Both the position numbers and the translations under genes were made by a program. The notes beneath the pieces are model-generated. The model did not search any database. It worked only from the letters and a program-made list of their open reading frames with translations, and was not told the DNA's origin. A stretch of 35,824 bases of DNA from positions 1 through 35,824 of the forward strand of contig JAKSNC010000020.1 of assembly GCA_024400195.1 (NCBI GenBank), written 5' to 3'. Positions 15,088 through 19,407 of the stretch are shown here, in pieces (position 1 is the stretch's first letter; every line of letters starts with the position of its first letter). This stretch comes from Bacteroidales bacterium (GTDB lineage Bacteria > Bacteroidota > Bacteroidia > Bacteroidales > F082).

Positions 15088-15265
15088 AGAAGCTGTTTAG
15101 ATTTCTTACAATGATAATTATATTGTATGTCATTTCGATGCGATTTGCATATCTTTCCGGCATCTTTTCCTCGTTTCACTCCTCGCACTATTCTTCGTCG
15201 CAAAACAAGAAAAATCTGCTCGAAAATATAATGCAAATCCCTATCGAACAAATCAAACAGCTTCT
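15088..15265 (+). mobile_element. MITE-like element, copy A
   Basis: A 178-bp element bounded by terminal inverted repeats AGAAGCTGTTTAGATTT and AAATCAAACAGCTTCT. An inverted copy with nearly the same sequence lies at 33577-33762. Inner sub-repeats (GATTTGCAT and ATGCAAATC) let it fold into a long imperfect hairpin. Short ORFs read through it on both copies, but they contain no start context and are probably incidental. It ends 32 bp before the ATG of the secreted-protein gene and fills most of the gap between 14962 and 15297. No transposase is present, so any mobility would depend on one elsewhere. Confidence 0.8.
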
Positions 15266-15297
15266 AAATCTTGAATAAAATAAAGCACACAATATTC

Positions 15298-16053
15298 ATG
15301 GACAAAATCTTTAAACTCTTGTTTTCGGCGGCACTTCTGTTGTGCTGCATCACGCTCAACGCCCAGCAGCCAAAGGGCGACGGCTCACAAGACAAGACCC
15401 CGCTGTCAATCGACAATGTGGCGTATATCGATGCCGACGGCGTAGAACAAACGGTCACGGCAACCGTAATCACTGACGAGACCTCCACTTTGAATGCGGG
15501 CTGGTATGCGGTTACAGGCAGTGATGTTCAAACTAGAACGCTCACCTGCAACGGTGCGGTCAACCTCATCCTTGCCGACGGAGCCAAACTCACGGTAGCG
15601 GGAGGAGATAGCCAAGCTGGTATCAACGTGTCAGGCAACGGCAACTCCCTCACTATCTACGGTCAGTCCGCTCAATCGGGCCAGCTGATTGCAAATGGAG
15701 GATTCTATGCTGCCGATATCAGCGGCGGATATGAAGGTTCCGGTTCTAACATCAAGGTGGCTGCCTCGCTCACCGTTTACGCTGACAACACGAACCCTCC
15801 GATATTAGAAATTCCACATACCGACGATGATATTGCATCTCATACTGCATTCCGATATGTAGTAGTAAAAGATGTCGTCACCGGCATAAAAGATTCTGCC
15901 ATCGCTGCCATCGCTGCACTTAAATCTGCATATAATTCCGGCCTCGGCGAAATGGGCGAACCTTGCGAGGACTGCCCCGTCGTGGAGGTTACGAAAGGCA
16001 CGAAGACGGTTAAACTTTACAATCCGGAGAACGTGAAGTTCAAGAAGGAATAG
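15298..16053 (+). CDS. Secreted beta-repeat protein with CEDCP C-terminal module
   Basis: A 251-residue exported protein. The signal peptide (about 1-21) ends at LNAQ. A parallel-beta-type repeat region follows, with LILADGAKLTVAGG, GINVSGNGNSLTIYGQ and GQLIANGG, a pattern seen in Bacteroidales surface proteins. Then come a short helical Ala/Ile segment and the tail GEMGEPCEDCP...VTKGTKTVKLYNPE..KFKKE (about residues 213-251). The same tail ends the 18325 gene and the pseudogene at 17453. The frame is open to a TTG at 15271, but the ATG at 15298 gives a proper signal peptide. Function unknown. A surface or secreted role is inferred from the signal peptide and repeats. The CxxC in the tail might form a disulfide or bind metal. 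Confidence 0.8.
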   Translation: MDKIFKLLFSAALLLCCITLNAQQPKGDGSQDKTPLSIDNVAYIDADGVEQTVTATVITDETSTLNAGWYAVTGSDVQTRTLTCNGAVNLILADGAKLTVAGGDSQAGINVSGNGNSLTIYGQSAQSGQLIANGGFYAADISGGYEGSGSNIKVAASLTVYADNTNPPILEIPHTDDDIASHTAFRYVVVKDVVTGIKDSAIAAIAALKSAYNSGLGEMGEPCEDCPVVEVTKGTKTVKLYNPENVKFKKE

Positions 16054-16118
16054 GGTTGAGGGCTTAGGAATAACGGAAAAATTTTTCTGACATTTCCTAC
16101 GTATATGGGAAAATATGG

Positions 16119-16150
16119 TATCTTTGCAAAAAAACTTGTAACAAGTTACA
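16119..16150 (+). promoter_or_regulatory. Promoter P1 with palindromic operator candidate
   Basis: The -7 box TATCTTTGC (16119-16127) is preceded by CGTATATGGGAAAA, which is shared with promoters P2 and P3. Just after the expected start point lie overlapping palindromes AACTTGTAACAAGTT (16133-16147) and TGTAACAAGTTACA (16137-16150), a good candidate binding site for autoregulation of the ATPase gene that starts at 16169. Confidence 0.6.
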
Positions 16151-16168
16151 GAAAAATACAATAGATAC

Positions 16169-17422
16169 ATGGTTTTTGGCCGAAAGAAATATTTAGAACA
16201 ACTCATTTCATTAGAGGGGAATGGTATGATTAAGATTGTCACCGGCATCCGTCGATGCGGTAAATCGTTTTTACTATTCAACCTTTACAAAGACTATTTG
16301 TTAAACAAAGGCATTCGGGCGGATCACATAATAGAGGTGAATTTGGAGAATCGTAGGAATAAAAAACTACGCGACCCTGACATGTTGTTAGAGTATATCG
16401 ACTCCAAAATTCTTGATGAGGCACATTATTATGTACTTTTGGATGAAATACAGTTAGTCCCGGAGTTTGAAGACGTACTCAACTCATACCTCTCAATGCC
16501 AAACGTGGATGTGTACGTTACGGGGTCTAATGCGAAGTTCCTTTCTTCGGATGTGATTACCGAGTTCCGTGGTCGAGGATGGGAGATACGTGTTCATCCT
16601 TTGAGTTTTGCAGAATATTATGAGGCTGTAGGAGGAGATGAACAACGGACACTCAATGACTATTATCTATATGGCGGCCTGCCGGCGGTTGCGTTAATGG
16701 ATTCTGACCAACAAAAACAAGATTATCTTACGGAAGTTTTTGAAACAGTCTATCTGAAAGATATACTGCAACGCAATCACCTGCGGAAAGTCAATGGCTT
16801 GCGGGAATTGGTCCGAATACTTGCATCTTCGATCGGGTCTGGTTTGAATGTGAAAAAAATCGCAAACACGTTTAAGTCTGAAAGTAATATGGATGTCTCC
16901 CCTATTACTATAGCATCCTATTTGGAACATCTTCAAGATGCATTTATTGTCAATGAGGCTATGCGTTATGACGTAAAAGGGCGTAAATATATAGGTACAG
17001 AGACCAAATACTATTTTGAGGATGTCGGTGTCCGTAATGCCATTATCGGTTTCCGTCAGATAGAGATGAATCATTCAATGGAAAATGTGATATACAATGA
17101 ACTACGACATTTAGGATACACCGTAGATGTTGGTATGGTAGAAGTGATGAAACGCGATGCTGAAGGGAAACAGTATAGGACCAGGTTGGAAGTGGATTTT
17201 GTGGTCAATCGTCATGACCAAAGATTATATATTCAGTCTGCGTATCGCATTCCGGATAAAGAAAAGATGGAACAGGAACAAGCGTCATTATTACATATTC
17301 CGGATGCTTTCAGAAAGATTATCATTGATGGTGACCGTTATACATCTAATTATAACAATAACGGCGTCTTGATGATTGGTGTTTGTGACTTTCTCATGCA
17401 TCCTGAAAAAATCAGTTCTTAA
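16169..17422 (+). CDS. AAA_14/DUF4143 ATP-binding protein
   Basis: A 417-residue P-loop ATPase of the AAA_14 plus DUF4143 family. Walker A is GIRRCGKS (26-33) and Walker B LLDEIQ (D92, E93); the sensor stretch VYVTGSNAKFLSS follows. The central region with YLYGGLPAV and TVYLKDILQRN is typical of the family, as is the C-terminal nuclease-like fold, where the site reads LEVDFVV...LYIQSAY, the usual ExK being replaced by QSA as in many relatives. The family is very abundant in Bacteroidota and its cellular role is not settled. The gene lies between two relatives of the CEDCP-tail protein, and the broken copy follows its stop in the same frame. Other members occur at 31515, 32088, and as a remnant at 17998. 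Confidence 0.93.
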   Translation: MVFGRKKYLEQLISLEGNGMIKIVTGIRRCGKSFLLFNLYKDYLLNKGIRADHIIEVNLENRRNKKLRDPDMLLEYIDSKILDEAHYYVLLDEIQLVPEFEDVLNSYLSMPNVDVYVTGSNAKFLSSDVITEFRGRGWEIRVHPLSFAEYYEAVGGDEQRTLNDYYLYGGLPAVALMDSDQQKQDYLTEVFETVYLKDILQRNHLRKVNGLRELVRILASSIGSGLNVKKIANTFKSESNMDVSPITIASYLEHLQDAFIVNEAMRYDVKGRKYIGTETKYYFEDVGVRNAIIGFRQIEMNHSMENVIYNELRHLGYTVDVGMVEVMKRDAEGKQYRTRLEVDFVVNRHDQRLYIQSAYRIPDKEKMEQEQASLLHIPDAFRKIIIDGDRYTSNYNNNGVLMIGVCDFLMHPEKISS

Positions 17423-17452
17423 ACTTTTCACGCGAAATTAGCACTAAAACCC

Positions 17453-17800
17453 GCTATCGGCGGCGGATTTGATGGTTCCGGCTCTGACATCTTCGTAGCT
17501 GCTGCGCTATCAGTTTACGCAAACGACAACACGAACCCTCCGACAATTGAAATATCACATACCGACGATGATATTGTGCCTTATATTGTAGCATTACGAT
17601 ATGTAATAGTGAATAATAATAAGACCAACGCGAAAGAGGCTGCCATCGCTGCCATCGCTTCCGCAAAGGCGATTTACAATTCCGGCCTCGGCGAAATGGG
17701 AGAACCTTGCGAGGACTGCCCCGCCGTGGATGTCACGAAAGGCACAACGACCATCAGGCTCTACAGCCCCGAAAAAGTGGAGTTCAGGAAAATGGAATAA
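17453..17800 (+). pseudogene. 5'-truncated copy of the CEDCP-tail secreted protein
   Basis: From AIGGGFDGSGSD onward the frame matches the 15298 gene (NTNPPTIEI, HTDDDI, AAIAAI, GLGEMGEPCEDCP, VTKGTTTIRLYSPE) to its stop. The signal peptide and most beta repeats are missing. The frame is open from the ATPase stop (17422), and the only starts are internal, such as a GTG at 17576, so secretion would fail. It is best read as a duplicate of the 15298 gene that lost its 5' part where the ATPase gene now lies. Confidence 0.75.
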
Positions 17801-17887
17801 AGTTTTTAGTTTTTAGTCTTTAGTTTTTAGAGTCAACGGACTAACGACTAAAGACTAACGACTAAAGACTAACGACTAAAGACTCAC
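17801..17887. repeat. Heptamer/14-mer tandem repeats able to form a hairpin
   Basis: Runs of TTTTTAGT and GTCTTTAGT (17801-17830) are followed by three exact copies of ACTAACGACTAAAG (17840-17881). The left part is the inverse complement of the right (GTCTTTAGT with ACTAAAGAC), so the transcript can fold back. It lies directly after the pseudogene stop and just before promoter P2, and may act as a terminator-like boundary. Confidence 0.8.
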
Positions 17888-17910
17888 GGAAAACAGAAAT
17901 ATTTCGTTGA

Positions 17911-17973
17911 TTTTTCGTAAGTATATGGAAAAAAGCAGTACTTTTGCAGTCGTTAAAAACGTGTATTTACACG
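17911..17973 (+). promoter_or_regulatory. Promoter P2 with palindrome
   Basis: The cassette TTTTTCGTAAGTATATGG (17911-17928), AAAAAAGCAG and the -7 box TACTTTTGC (17939-17947) nearly repeats promoter P3. A perfect palindrome CGTGTA-TT-TACACG (17960-17973) follows, in the same relative place as the palindrome after P1. It now precedes only a decayed ATPase remnant. Confidence 0.6.
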
Positions 17974-17997
17974 GAATCAACGAATACAATATGCTTT

Positions 17998-18108
17998 TGC
18001 AATGCAGATAAAAAGAGACTGCAACCAACCTATATGAACGATGACGGCTTGTTTATCGTCAACTTAGTGGATTTCCTTATGAATCCGGCAAAATTTATTG
18101 GTGAATAG
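17998..18108 (+). pseudogene. C-terminal remnant of a second AAA_14/DUF4143 ATPase
   Basis: The frame ending at a TAG (18106-18108) reads RLQPTYMNDDGLFIVNLVDF then LMNPAKFIGE. This matches the end of the 16169 ATPase (NYNNNGVLMIGVCDFLMHPE). Walker motifs and everything upstream are gone. An ATG at 17991, at the position expected after P2, is out of frame. This is a gene reduced to its promoter and its last 30 or so codons. The next 200 bp (18109-18324) hold a hairpin repeat and P3, no gene. Confidence 0.65.
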
Positions 18109-18182
18109 TTACAGACTGATAATTCTATTCGACCTCATGGCACTCGGCATCGGCGCTTTTGGCTTCTTGACAAGGTGGAGTT

Positions 18183-18222
18183 TTTTTAGTCTTTAGTTTT
18201 TAGAGACTAACGACTAAAGACA
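18183..18222. repeat. Hairpin repeat upstream of promoter P3
   Basis: GTCTTTAGT (18189-18197) pairs perfectly with ACTAAAGAC (18213-18221) around a 15-nt loop. It is the same unit as in the 17801-17887 array, here as a single hairpin preceded by a T-run. Confidence 0.75.
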
Positions 18223-18241
18223 AACGGAAACATTTCGCTGA

Positions 18242-18305
18242 TTTTTCGTAAGTATGCGGGGAAAAAGCAGTACCTTTGCAGCCGGAATTTTTTACCCTGT
18301 AAAAA
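18242..18305 (+). promoter_or_regulatory. Promoter P3 with inverted repeat in the leader
   Basis: The cassette TTTTTCGTAAGTAT (18242-18255), GGGGAAAAAGCAG and the -7 box TACCTTTGC (18271-18279) is the third copy of the P1/P2 type. Downstream, TTTTTAC (18289-18295) and GTAAAAA (18299-18305) form an inverted repeat with a 3-nt loop. The ATG of the 360-residue surface protein is at 18325. Confidence 0.65.
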
Positions 18306-18324
18306 TATAAACAGACAATAAATC

Positions 18325-19407
18325 ATGCGCAAATTATTTTTCCTTTTCATCGCCCTGACGCTCGGTATCGGAGCATGGGCAACAGCGGTCGGAGACCAAT
18401 TCGAGGACGCCACTTCCAGATTGAAGTTTGAGGTTACTTCTCTTGACCCCAAAACCGTCAAAGTGATTGCCAATGATTATACAGGCTCTTCCTTCACCAT
18501 TCCTGCTACGGTAAGTTATTTGGAAGATGACTATGCTGTAACGGCGATTGGCGAGAACGCCTTCGCCGGTGTGGGTAGTCAGAGCTATCCGGCTGACTTG
18601 CTGTTGCCTGCTGATTGGGAAGGTTCTAAACCTGCGGCTTCCGCAACATTGTGGTATGGCGGTTATTTCGTAGATTATCGCGCAGCCACTATCGCTTATA
18701 TCAAAGCAGCGAGCGATGAGGCAGAAAATTTAATCGAAGAAGCTGCAACGGGTTTTGTAGGGATTGAGGATGTAAAAAAGGCGAAGGCGAATGCCGCTTC
18801 TGCTTTAGCGAATGCACAAGCAACTGCCGACAACACTATTGGCGCGGCTGCCAATATGATTGCTATTGCAAATGCCAAAGATGACGCCATCATTGCAATA
18901 CACTTGGCAACTAACGAAGCCTTGGTAGCTATCGAAGCCGCTATTGCTTCTCTGAAGGGAGATGCTATTGACGAAATTGAATTAGCTATCGTTGGTGTTA
19001 CCGATGAAGCTATCCTTGCTGTCGCCAATAAGGCAATAGAGGACATCAATGATGCTACAACCGCACAGGAAATTGACGCTGTCAAAACTCTTGCCTTAGC
19101 CAAGATTAATGCCCTCGTTCTAATTCAAGTGGCTCGTCAGGGTATTCAGAATACAGAAATCAACGCTATGATTGATGATGCGGTTACTGCTATCAGTAGT
19201 GCTACGAATACGGAACAGATAGAAAAAAACTTATTCGATGCTATTACTGTAATAGATTTATTCCAATCCGGCAAAGAGGAAGGCAAAGCCGAAGCTCTCG
19301 GCGAAATAGGCGAGTTTTGCGAGGACTGCCCGAGCGTGGAAGTTACGAAAGGCACGAAGACGGTTAAACTTTATAACCCGGAGAGCGTGACGTTCAAGAA
19401 AGAGTAG
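18325..19407 (+). CDS. Secreted protein: BspA-like LRR start, Ala-rich helices, CEDCP tail
   Basis: A 360-residue exported protein. The signal peptide (about 1-19) ends at GAWA. Residues 30-115 look like a shortened BspA-type leucine-rich repeat region (FTIPATVSY, AVTAIGENAFAGV, then LLPADWEGSKPAA.ATLWYGGYF). About 120-320 is a long, Ala/Ile-rich helical stretch with recurring AIAAI, DAI and ANA units, likely a coiled coil or helical-bundle stalk. The last 40 residues repeat the module GEIGEFCEDCP...VTKGTKTVKLYNPES. Its last 110 bp are almost identical in DNA to those of the 15298 gene, while the rest differs, so the tail has been spread or homogenised separately. Likely surface-exposed; partner unknown. 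Confidence 0.8.
   Translation: MRKLFFLFIALTLGIGAWATAVGDQFEDATSRLKFEVTSLDPKTVKVIANDYTGSSFTIPATVSYLEDDYAVTAIGENAFAGVGSQSYPADLLLPADWEGSKPAASATLWYGGYFVDYRAATIAYIKAASDEAENLIEEAATGFVGIEDVKKAKANAASALANAQATADNTIGAAANMIAIANAKDDAIIAIHLATNEALVAIEAAIASLKGDAIDEIELAIVGVTDEAILAVANKAIEDINDATTAQEIDAVKTLALAKINALVLIQVARQGIQNTEINAMIDDAVTAISSATNTEQIEKNLFDAITVIDLFQSGKEEGKAEALGEIGEFCEDCPSVEVTKGTKTVKLYNPESVTFKKE

What the first reader, a model, noticed from the sequence alone, without database searches (positions are those of the whole stretch)
15298..19407. Family of secreted proteins sharing a CEDCP...VTKGTKTVKLYNPE C-terminal module
Two genes and one broken copy end in the same module of about 40 residues, with an invariant CEDCP and a VTKGT.T.(K/R)LY.PE block, on otherwise unrelated N-terminal parts (beta repeats; LRR plus helical stalk). 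At DNA level the tail is much more conserved than the rest. A portable C-terminal tail on secreted proteins could be an undescribed sorting, anchoring or partner-binding signal. It does not look like the T9SS domains seen elsewhere in this window (no YPNP motif).
Basis: partly seen in the sequence, partly recalled or inferred. Interest (0 to 1): 0.8.

Follow-up and report, generated by a model that had tools for sequence, protein, structure and literature searches.

The report
Swappable tail on secreted Bacteroidales proteins
Several secreted proteins of horse-gut Bacteroidales end in the same short tail, which is swapped between otherwise different genes and sits where related proteins carry the signal that exports them to the cell surface, so it may be a new, very short export or anchoring signal.

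Summary
Two genes and one broken copy in the window end in a tail of about 38 residues (LGEMGEPCxxCPxVxVTKGxKxxxLYxPexVxFxK); the genome has seven strong copies. In the genus 8 of 99 genomes carry it. All 43 pattern-selected frames from 13 genomes end 29-37 residues after the first Cys; 25 of 43 have a signal-peptide-like start.

Two results go further. Homologues of the beta-repeat domain that carries the tail end, in 12 of 23 frames of non-carrier relatives, in a T9SS type A-like end and never in the tail; so the tail occupies the slot of a surface-export signal without resembling it. And the tail is an exchangeable ~115-bp cassette: 15 of 820 gene pairs share it between unrelated flanks, while all 7 pairs with near-identical upstream DNA carry different tails (5 of 7 touch contig ends).

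Best reading: a minimal C-terminal export or anchoring signal, perhaps read by T9SS, whose DNA also serves as a recombination joint. Cys-less versions show that CxxCP is not essential. Named public hits come from horse faeces at 23 of 24 loci.

The parts
15298..16053 (+). Tail gene 1 (250 aa from ATG 15298): leader, beta-repeat domain, short helical stretch, tail
   Evidence: no Pfam or NCBIfam family over its cut-off
15418..15804 (+). Beta-repeat domain of gene 1; homologues in non-carrier relatives often end in a T9SS type A CTD
15940..16050 (+). Tail of gene 1: GLGEMGEPCEDCPVVEVTKGTKTVKLYNPENVKFKKE
16169..17422 (+). AAA_14/DUF4143 ATPase between tail gene 1 and the broken copy; relatives of this kind recur at tail loci
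   Evidence: Pfam E 5e-33 and 9e-18; neighbour clustering
17423..17800 (+). Broken copy: open frame without leader; 17451-17744 is 78% identical to part of gene 1
17684..17797 (+). Tail of the broken copy: GLGEMGEPCEDCPAVDVTKGTTTIRLYSPEKVEFRKME; 98% identical in DNA to a tail in genome G085
18325..19407 (+). Tail gene 2 (360 aa): leader, LRR-like part, long helical stalk, tail
   Evidence: weak DUF1542 match E 0.001 in the stalk
18679..19290 (+). Helical stalk of gene 2; the 240 nt before the tail are 98-100% identical to a gene of genome G045 that has another tail
19291..19404 (+). Tail of gene 2: EALGEIGEFCEDCPSVEVTKGTKTVKLYNPESVTFKKE

Best explanation
The tail is a minimal C-terminal export and anchoring signal. 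SHOWN: it is a module of about 38 residues, strictly at the C terminus of proteins with signal-peptide-like starts; its protein sequence is constrained; it stands where homologues of the same domain carry a T9SS type A CTD; its DNA is shared between genes and species almost on its own. INFERRED: the last 24 or so residues form a small beta sheet (VxV, TVxLY, VxFxK) with a Lys near the end. After Sec export and leader cleavage, the outer-membrane export machinery, most likely the T9SS that the carriers have, recognises this sheet and delivers or anchors the protein at the surface. CxxCP would be a turn or disulphide clamp of one tail class; the Cys-less classes use other turns or a second hairpin. 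The conserved DNA at the start of the tail would also be the joint at which recombination swaps N-terminal modules or tails.
For: Always last: 43 of 43 frames; the 19 Cys-less matches also begin within 53 residues of the end of their frames. Signal-peptide-like starts in 25 of 43, 17 of 25 with A or G followed by Q, as in the Bacteroidetes Q-rule (abstract starts seen). Same domain, two endings: 12 of 23 non-carrier frames with the beta-repeat domain have a type A-like end, none the tail; 8 of 10 C-ends scanned match TIGR04183 over its cut-off, seven from non-carriers and one from carrier G090, which has both endings. Precedent: the last 22 residues (two strands) of the HBP35 CTD carry an export signal (passages), and P. 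intermedia has CTDs of 43-55 residues modelled as three strands, with a fixed basic residue in motif E. Median dN/dS of the tail 0.25 over 610 pairs.
Against: No sequence similarity to CTD types A, B or C and no GxY motif D as in the P. intermedia short CTDs. 11 of 23 non-carrier homologues end in neither signal (some are broken frames). The domain homology is modest: 30-47% over 77-143 residues in long modular proteins. SprA in 13 of 13 carriers says nothing, since 187 of 198 genomes of the order have it. The dN/dS of the DNA just upstream is similar (0.32 over 69 pairs). The CxxCP class has no explanation in this model. No fold, export or reader was shown.
Confidence: 0.45

Rival explanations
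1. A partner-binding tag (docking tail): the proteins reach their place by other means and the tail clips them onto a scaffold, receptor or each other. The different tail versions would give specificity, and CxxC would be a disulphide or metal site.
For: Tails occur as several sequence versions that are exchanged between genes. The tail can follow a stalk or an LRR end directly. CxxC is kept in all 38 strong matches of the genus.
Against: It stands in the slot of an export signal, and no tail frame was seen with a TIGR04183 match (partial scans). Without it the proteins have no known way across the outer membrane. None of the six neighbour families shared by three or more genomes looks like a scaffold or shuttle. 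Cys-less classes exist.
Confidence: 0.25
2. No sorting role: the tail is a structural end cap kept by descent, and its spread is a by-product of recombination, the conserved tail DNA being a convenient joint for shuffling surface-protein genes.
For: Upstream and tail have similar dN/dS. Break points lie at the conserved start of the tail. The leader end is shared in DNA between genes too (window 15265-15395 is 94-95% identical to G085 genes).
Against: A cap should match its domain, yet near-identical tails follow unrelated structures (15 pairs) and near-identical stalks carry different tails. Proteins with homologous domains and no tail use an export signal instead.
Confidence: 0.2
3. For the swapping alone: a chimera of metagenome assembly or binning at repeated sequence.
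For: The public relatives are MAGs. Five of the seven pairs with near-identical upstream DNA include a frame at or next to a contig end.
Against: Two pairs lie inside contigs (window gene 2 against L047:1901-2986; L116 against L117), and so does the tandem pair of L059. Tail-only sharing also appears inside contigs and between MAGs. Similarity between genomes is mosaic, not contig-wide, in the stretches compared.
Confidence: 0.2

Closest known systems
T9SS type A CTD (TIGR04183, PF18962)
   Same: C-terminal, on varied proteins with Sec leaders, in the same genomes and after homologous domains; ends in a basic strand
   Different: About 70 residues and seven strands against about 38; motifs B and D absent; no profile similarity
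Short CTDs of Prevotella intermedia (PMC11969387)
   Same: 43-55 residues, modelled as three strands, fixed basic residue near the end, many cargo proteins in one genome
   Different: Those keep GxY/GxN and the other CTD motifs; this tail is shorter, has LYxP and CxxCP, and is patchy and exchanged between genes
T9SS type B and type C CTDs (TIGR04131, NF033708)
   Same: Alternative C-terminal signals in T9SS bacteria; type B uses cognate PorP/SprF shuttles
   Different: About 100 residues with other motifs; no match, and no PorP/SprF-like gene among the shared neighbours
LPXTG and CTERM sorting tails (recalled)
   Same: Short C-terminal region shared by unrelated secreted proteins
   Different: Those have a transmembrane helix and a basic end; this tail has no hydrophobic helix
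Dockerin-like docking modules (recalled)
   Same: Portable C-terminal module on secreted proteins of fibre-degrading gut bacteria
   Different: No repeat or calcium motif, no matching scaffold seen

Membership tests
T9SS type A CTD | Match to the TIGR04183 model | tested here: not met
   No NCBIfam match for 21 tails at E<=10, nor for the three window frames at E<=1; HMMER filters may drop weak matches. hhalign against 8 local CTDs: probability 0.2 percent
T9SS type A CTD | Strictly C-terminal on proteins with a Sec leader | tested here: met
   43 of 43 frames C-terminal; leader-like start in 25 of 43, the rest cut or broken (simple hydrophobicity rule, not SignalP)
T9SS type A CTD | Organism has the T9SS translocon | tested here: met
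   SprA over the cut-off in 13 of 13 carriers, in two pieces in two of them; uninformative, 187 of 198 in the order
T9SS type A CTD | Needed and sufficient for export across the outer membrane | not testable with these tools
   Needs a reporter fusion
Short CTD of the P. intermedia kind | Motif D GxY or GxN, motif B Gly and Tyr, motif E basic residue | tested here: not met
   By eye on alignment A1: a near-invariant Lys at the end, but no GxY or GxN before the last strand; motifs as given
Short CTD of the P. intermedia kind | Three-stranded sheet that fits PorV | not testable with these tools
T9SS type B or C CTD | Match to TIGR04131 or NF033708 | tested here: not met
   No match for 21 tails at E<=10
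LPXTG or CTERM sorting tail | Hydrophobic transmembrane helix before the C-terminal end | tested here: not met
   By eye on the tails
Diversity-generating retroelement target | Reverse transcriptase and template repeat nearby, changes at template A positions | not tested
   No such gene among the Pfam-scanned shared neighbours; no dedicated search

The most novel reading that the evidence does not exclude
A fourth kind of T9SS C-terminal signal and the shortest natural one, existing as several interchangeable versions that hop between surface-protein genes, and between species of the equine hindgut, as a 115-bp cassette, so that cells re-address or re-anchor the same surface protein by swapping its tail.
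Probability: 0.22. Interest if true: 0.85.

Novelty: new variant of a known kind. Interest (0 to 1): 0.58.

Why it matters
How T9SS reads different signals, and whether different signals mean different destinations, are listed as open questions in a 2023 review (PMC10202324, passage). A natural 38-residue stand-in for the 70-residue domain, with Cys and Cys-less versions, would be a compact test object. If it is a signal, cargo lists built on the known CTD models miss whole protein families. The exchange of tails would also show one way in which gut bacteria remodel their surface proteins.

Tried and rejected
Known family by sequence: Pfam and NCBIfam give nothing over a cut-off for the Cys tails (one DUF6767 match at E 0.029 in 1 of 21). 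The PDB profile search lists 14 chains; the best, WD-40 repeat proteins (2ymu, E 8e-10 for the whole chain), add up repeats over nine positions and no single stretch passes; I read them as repeat-summed strand similarity. The Cys-less double-hairpin class gives weak matches to Rib domains (E 0.001-0.09) and to the MiiA motif (best E 6e-5, 22.6 bits against a cut-off of 24). I take these as generic hairpin similarity; none of the ten listed titles for MiiA concerns such a motif.

Only-here hypothesis: rejected. Phage-borne module: the viral scan found no relative. One clade explains the distribution: not on a 28-genome rplB-region tree with 8 carriers and 20 of the 91 non-carriers (4 label changes, 3 forced by starred branches). 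Co-occurrence with SprA: dropped as evidence, base rate 187 of 198. Cysteine-dependent attachment as the general mechanism: unlikely, because Cys-less tails of the same genomes hold the same place. The weak order-wide matches (30 other genomes): ten inspected, one a tail relative (G551), nine in unrelated proteins; the rest not inspected. A profile for the Cys-less classes was not built for a wider search.

Counting notes: one search required 120 nt upstream and 60 nt downstream (820 of 903 pairs kept). Re-counted on all 903 pairs: with upstream identity >=0.95, 7 of 7 pairs have a clearly lower tail; at >=0.90, 7 of 9 (L055/L057 and L049/L054 keep similar tails); at >=0.85, 8 of 13. The seven pairs come from five gene sets (three pairs from one gene in three genomes), so they are not independent.
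Full report
WHAT IS THERE. The window is contig C13 of a 1.84-Mb draft genome (54 contigs, 89.7% complete). Its genus is probably Candidatus Limimorpha: same-genus genome G045 has a 3161-base contig with the match at the same place as JAGHUX010000018.1, titled Candidatus Limimorpha caballi (inference). The frames 15298-16053 and 18325-19407 and the truncated frame 17423-17800 end in the tail. The own genome holds 8 places at E<=10 on three contigs, seven of them strong. With the profile, Cys-less relatives on contig C16 also appear, weakly.

ALWAYS LAST, ON EXPORTED PROTEINS. In 8 same-genus genomes 38 frames match CxxCP...LYxP, and all end 29-37 residues after the first Cys. Five named relatives bring this to 43 of 43. 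25 of 43 begin with a signal-peptide-like segment by a simple hydrophobicity rule. Of the other 18, five are cut at the end of a contig or stretch, three begin next to a contig start, and ten lack an in-frame leader, the broken copy of the window among them. In 17 of 25 leaders A or G is followed by Q, which fits the Bacteroidetes Q-rule for signal peptidase I (PMC5837995, PMC10653852; starts of abstracts in the listing). The parts before the tail include LRR (Pfam LRR_5 in 3 of 28 C-terminal pieces scanned), beta repeats and helical stalks (DUF1542 in 2 of 28). The tail follows either a stalk or an LRR end directly, so it does not need the stalk.

THE CYSTEINES ARE NOT THE CORE. The profile finds 57 matches in 8 of 99 genomes of the genus; the other 91 have none at E<=0.001. 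38 matches are strong and have CxxC. The 19 weaker ones lack it and begin within 53 residues of the end of their frame: for example EEHPGPAVKVTKGDTEVILYLPDKVEYIIRK, TTGPAVRITKQGKSDLILINPDKVEFIKIEE, and a double hairpin VEITNQDDSTVTLYGLKKVEFIKENDTPAVRVTYKDGSTVTYENPKKVEFKKE; a few are pseudogene pieces. The common core is about 24 residues with alternating hydrophobic positions and a basic end, which I read as a small beta sheet.

SAME SLOT AS THE T9SS SIGNAL. The beta-repeat domain of gene 1 (15418-15804) has homologues at E<=1e-8 in 22 of 172 genomes of the family: the 8 carriers and 14 without the tail. I fetched stretches from all 14. Of 23 frames from non-carriers that hold the domain and reach a stop codon, 12 have a type A-like end by pattern, 0 have the tail and 11 have neither; some of these 11 are visibly broken. 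I scanned ten C-ends with NCBIfam: 8 match TIGR04183 over its cut-off, seven from non-carriers and one from carrier G090, which thus has both endings; the two misses are a frame that stops before the CTD and one with another end. So the same kind of domain, in the same genus, ends either in an export signal or in this tail. The homology is modest (30-47% over 77-143 residues). The own genome has SprA and 57 places with TIGR04183. All 13 carriers have SprA, but so have 187 of 198 genomes of the order, so this adds nothing.

A SWAPPABLE CASSETTE. Of 820 pairs of tail frames, 15 share tail DNA at 0.88-0.96 while the 120 nt before and 60 nt after are at or near random level (random mean 0.47). Conversely, over all 903 pairs, 7 have upstream DNA at least 0.95 identical, and all 7 have a clearly different tail (0.68-0.84); downstream identity is 0.48-0.67, at or somewhat above random. 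At upstream >=0.90 this is 7 of 9 pairs, at >=0.85 it is 8 of 13. The change sets in within the first codons of the tail (A-L-G-E-M-G...), a stretch conserved in most copies. Window gene 2 is 98-100% identical to a G045 gene over the 240 nt before its tail, although the two genomes are about 0.5 changes per site apart on the rplB-region tree. Tail loci of the own genome share blocks of 92-97% identity with G045 and G085. The simplest account is homologous recombination in the conserved start of the tail, plus transfer between species. The tail is also constrained as a protein: median dN/dS 0.25 over 610 pairs; the DNA just upstream, where alignable, gives 0.32 over 69 pairs, so the constraint is not special to the tail. 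Caveat: five of the seven pairs involve a frame at or next to a contig end of a MAG.

DISTRIBUTION. In the family 8 of 173 genomes carry it, all in one of 16 genera. The carriers are not one clade on a 28-genome tree. In an order sample of 393 genomes only the own genome has the strong tail; G551 has a Cys-less relative (E 1.7e-5). The scan of one genome for each of 84,980 species, which needs an exact short motif, gave 24 loci. By title or species description 23 are from horse faeces: Limimorpha caballi, Colicola caccequi (PMC8957277, passages) and Horse_feces MAGs labelled Bacteroidales, Bacteroidaceae and Paludibacteraceae; one states no host. Whether sampling explains this I cannot say. 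The host of the window's own genome is unknown to me.

HOW IT PROBABLY WORKS. [quoted passage not shown] PMC11285876; passages). P. intermedia has CTDs of 43-55 residues, modelled as three strands that fit PorV; cleavage and glycosylation were seen for cargo with short and long CTDs (PMC11969387, passages and section 3.5). Type B signals depend on cognate shuttles, and the signal decides the final place (PMC12618676, passages). A 38-residue C-terminal tail with a basic end in the slot of a type A CTD fits this logic. It works like a T9SS signal on this reading, but it is not a member of any CTD family that I could test. No PorP/SprF-like gene is among the six neighbour families shared by three or more carrier genomes, so a shuttle next door is not indicated.

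WHAT IS NEW. Paper searches for further CTD types or similar tails (open-licence PMC only, listings) showed none like this. The review that I saw passages of lists types A, B and C. I rate it a new variant of a known kind, with the bolder reading at 0.22.

Noticed in passing
window 18034-18108: By eye, a short frame MNDDGLFIVNLVDFLMNPAKFIGE* looks like the end of a second DUF4143 ATPase, so tail genes and ATPase genes seem to alternate here, partly decayed.
   Followed up: no
window 17801-17886 and downstream of many tail stops: Directly after the tail's stop codon many copies run into 6-8-base tandem repeats (for example GGTTTAG, GTGAAAG, GACTAAC), the stop codon often being part of the repeat.
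   Followed up: partly
window 15265-15395: The leader region of gene 1 is 94-95% identical in DNA to leaders of long genes in genome G085, so the 5' end is shared between genes as well as the 3' tail.
   Followed up: partly
L118:1-4311 and L213:5468-9778: A long LRR protein gene with the double-hairpin ending is 96.8% identical in G000 and G045; the similarity stops right after the gene's stop codon.
   Followed up: partly
L115:5087-7006, L117:4967-6871: Stalk proteins next to tail genes end in another shared form, GKYIINGQFVIVKDNKMYNAQG, with no NCBIfam match: perhaps one more short C-terminal signal.
   Followed up: partly
L047:4451-6349, L116:291-2123, L117:716-2461, L148:1146-2990: An amidohydrolase (Amidohydro_3) with a lipoprotein-like start recurs at tail loci of four carrier genomes.
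   Followed up: partly
L018:2227-3174, L117:3428-4438, L116:3169-4263: Tail loci also hold a Fic-like gene (by eye), an ORF6N-domain gene and a YhcG-type PDDEXK nuclease gene, a setting typical of exchanged islands.
   Followed up: no
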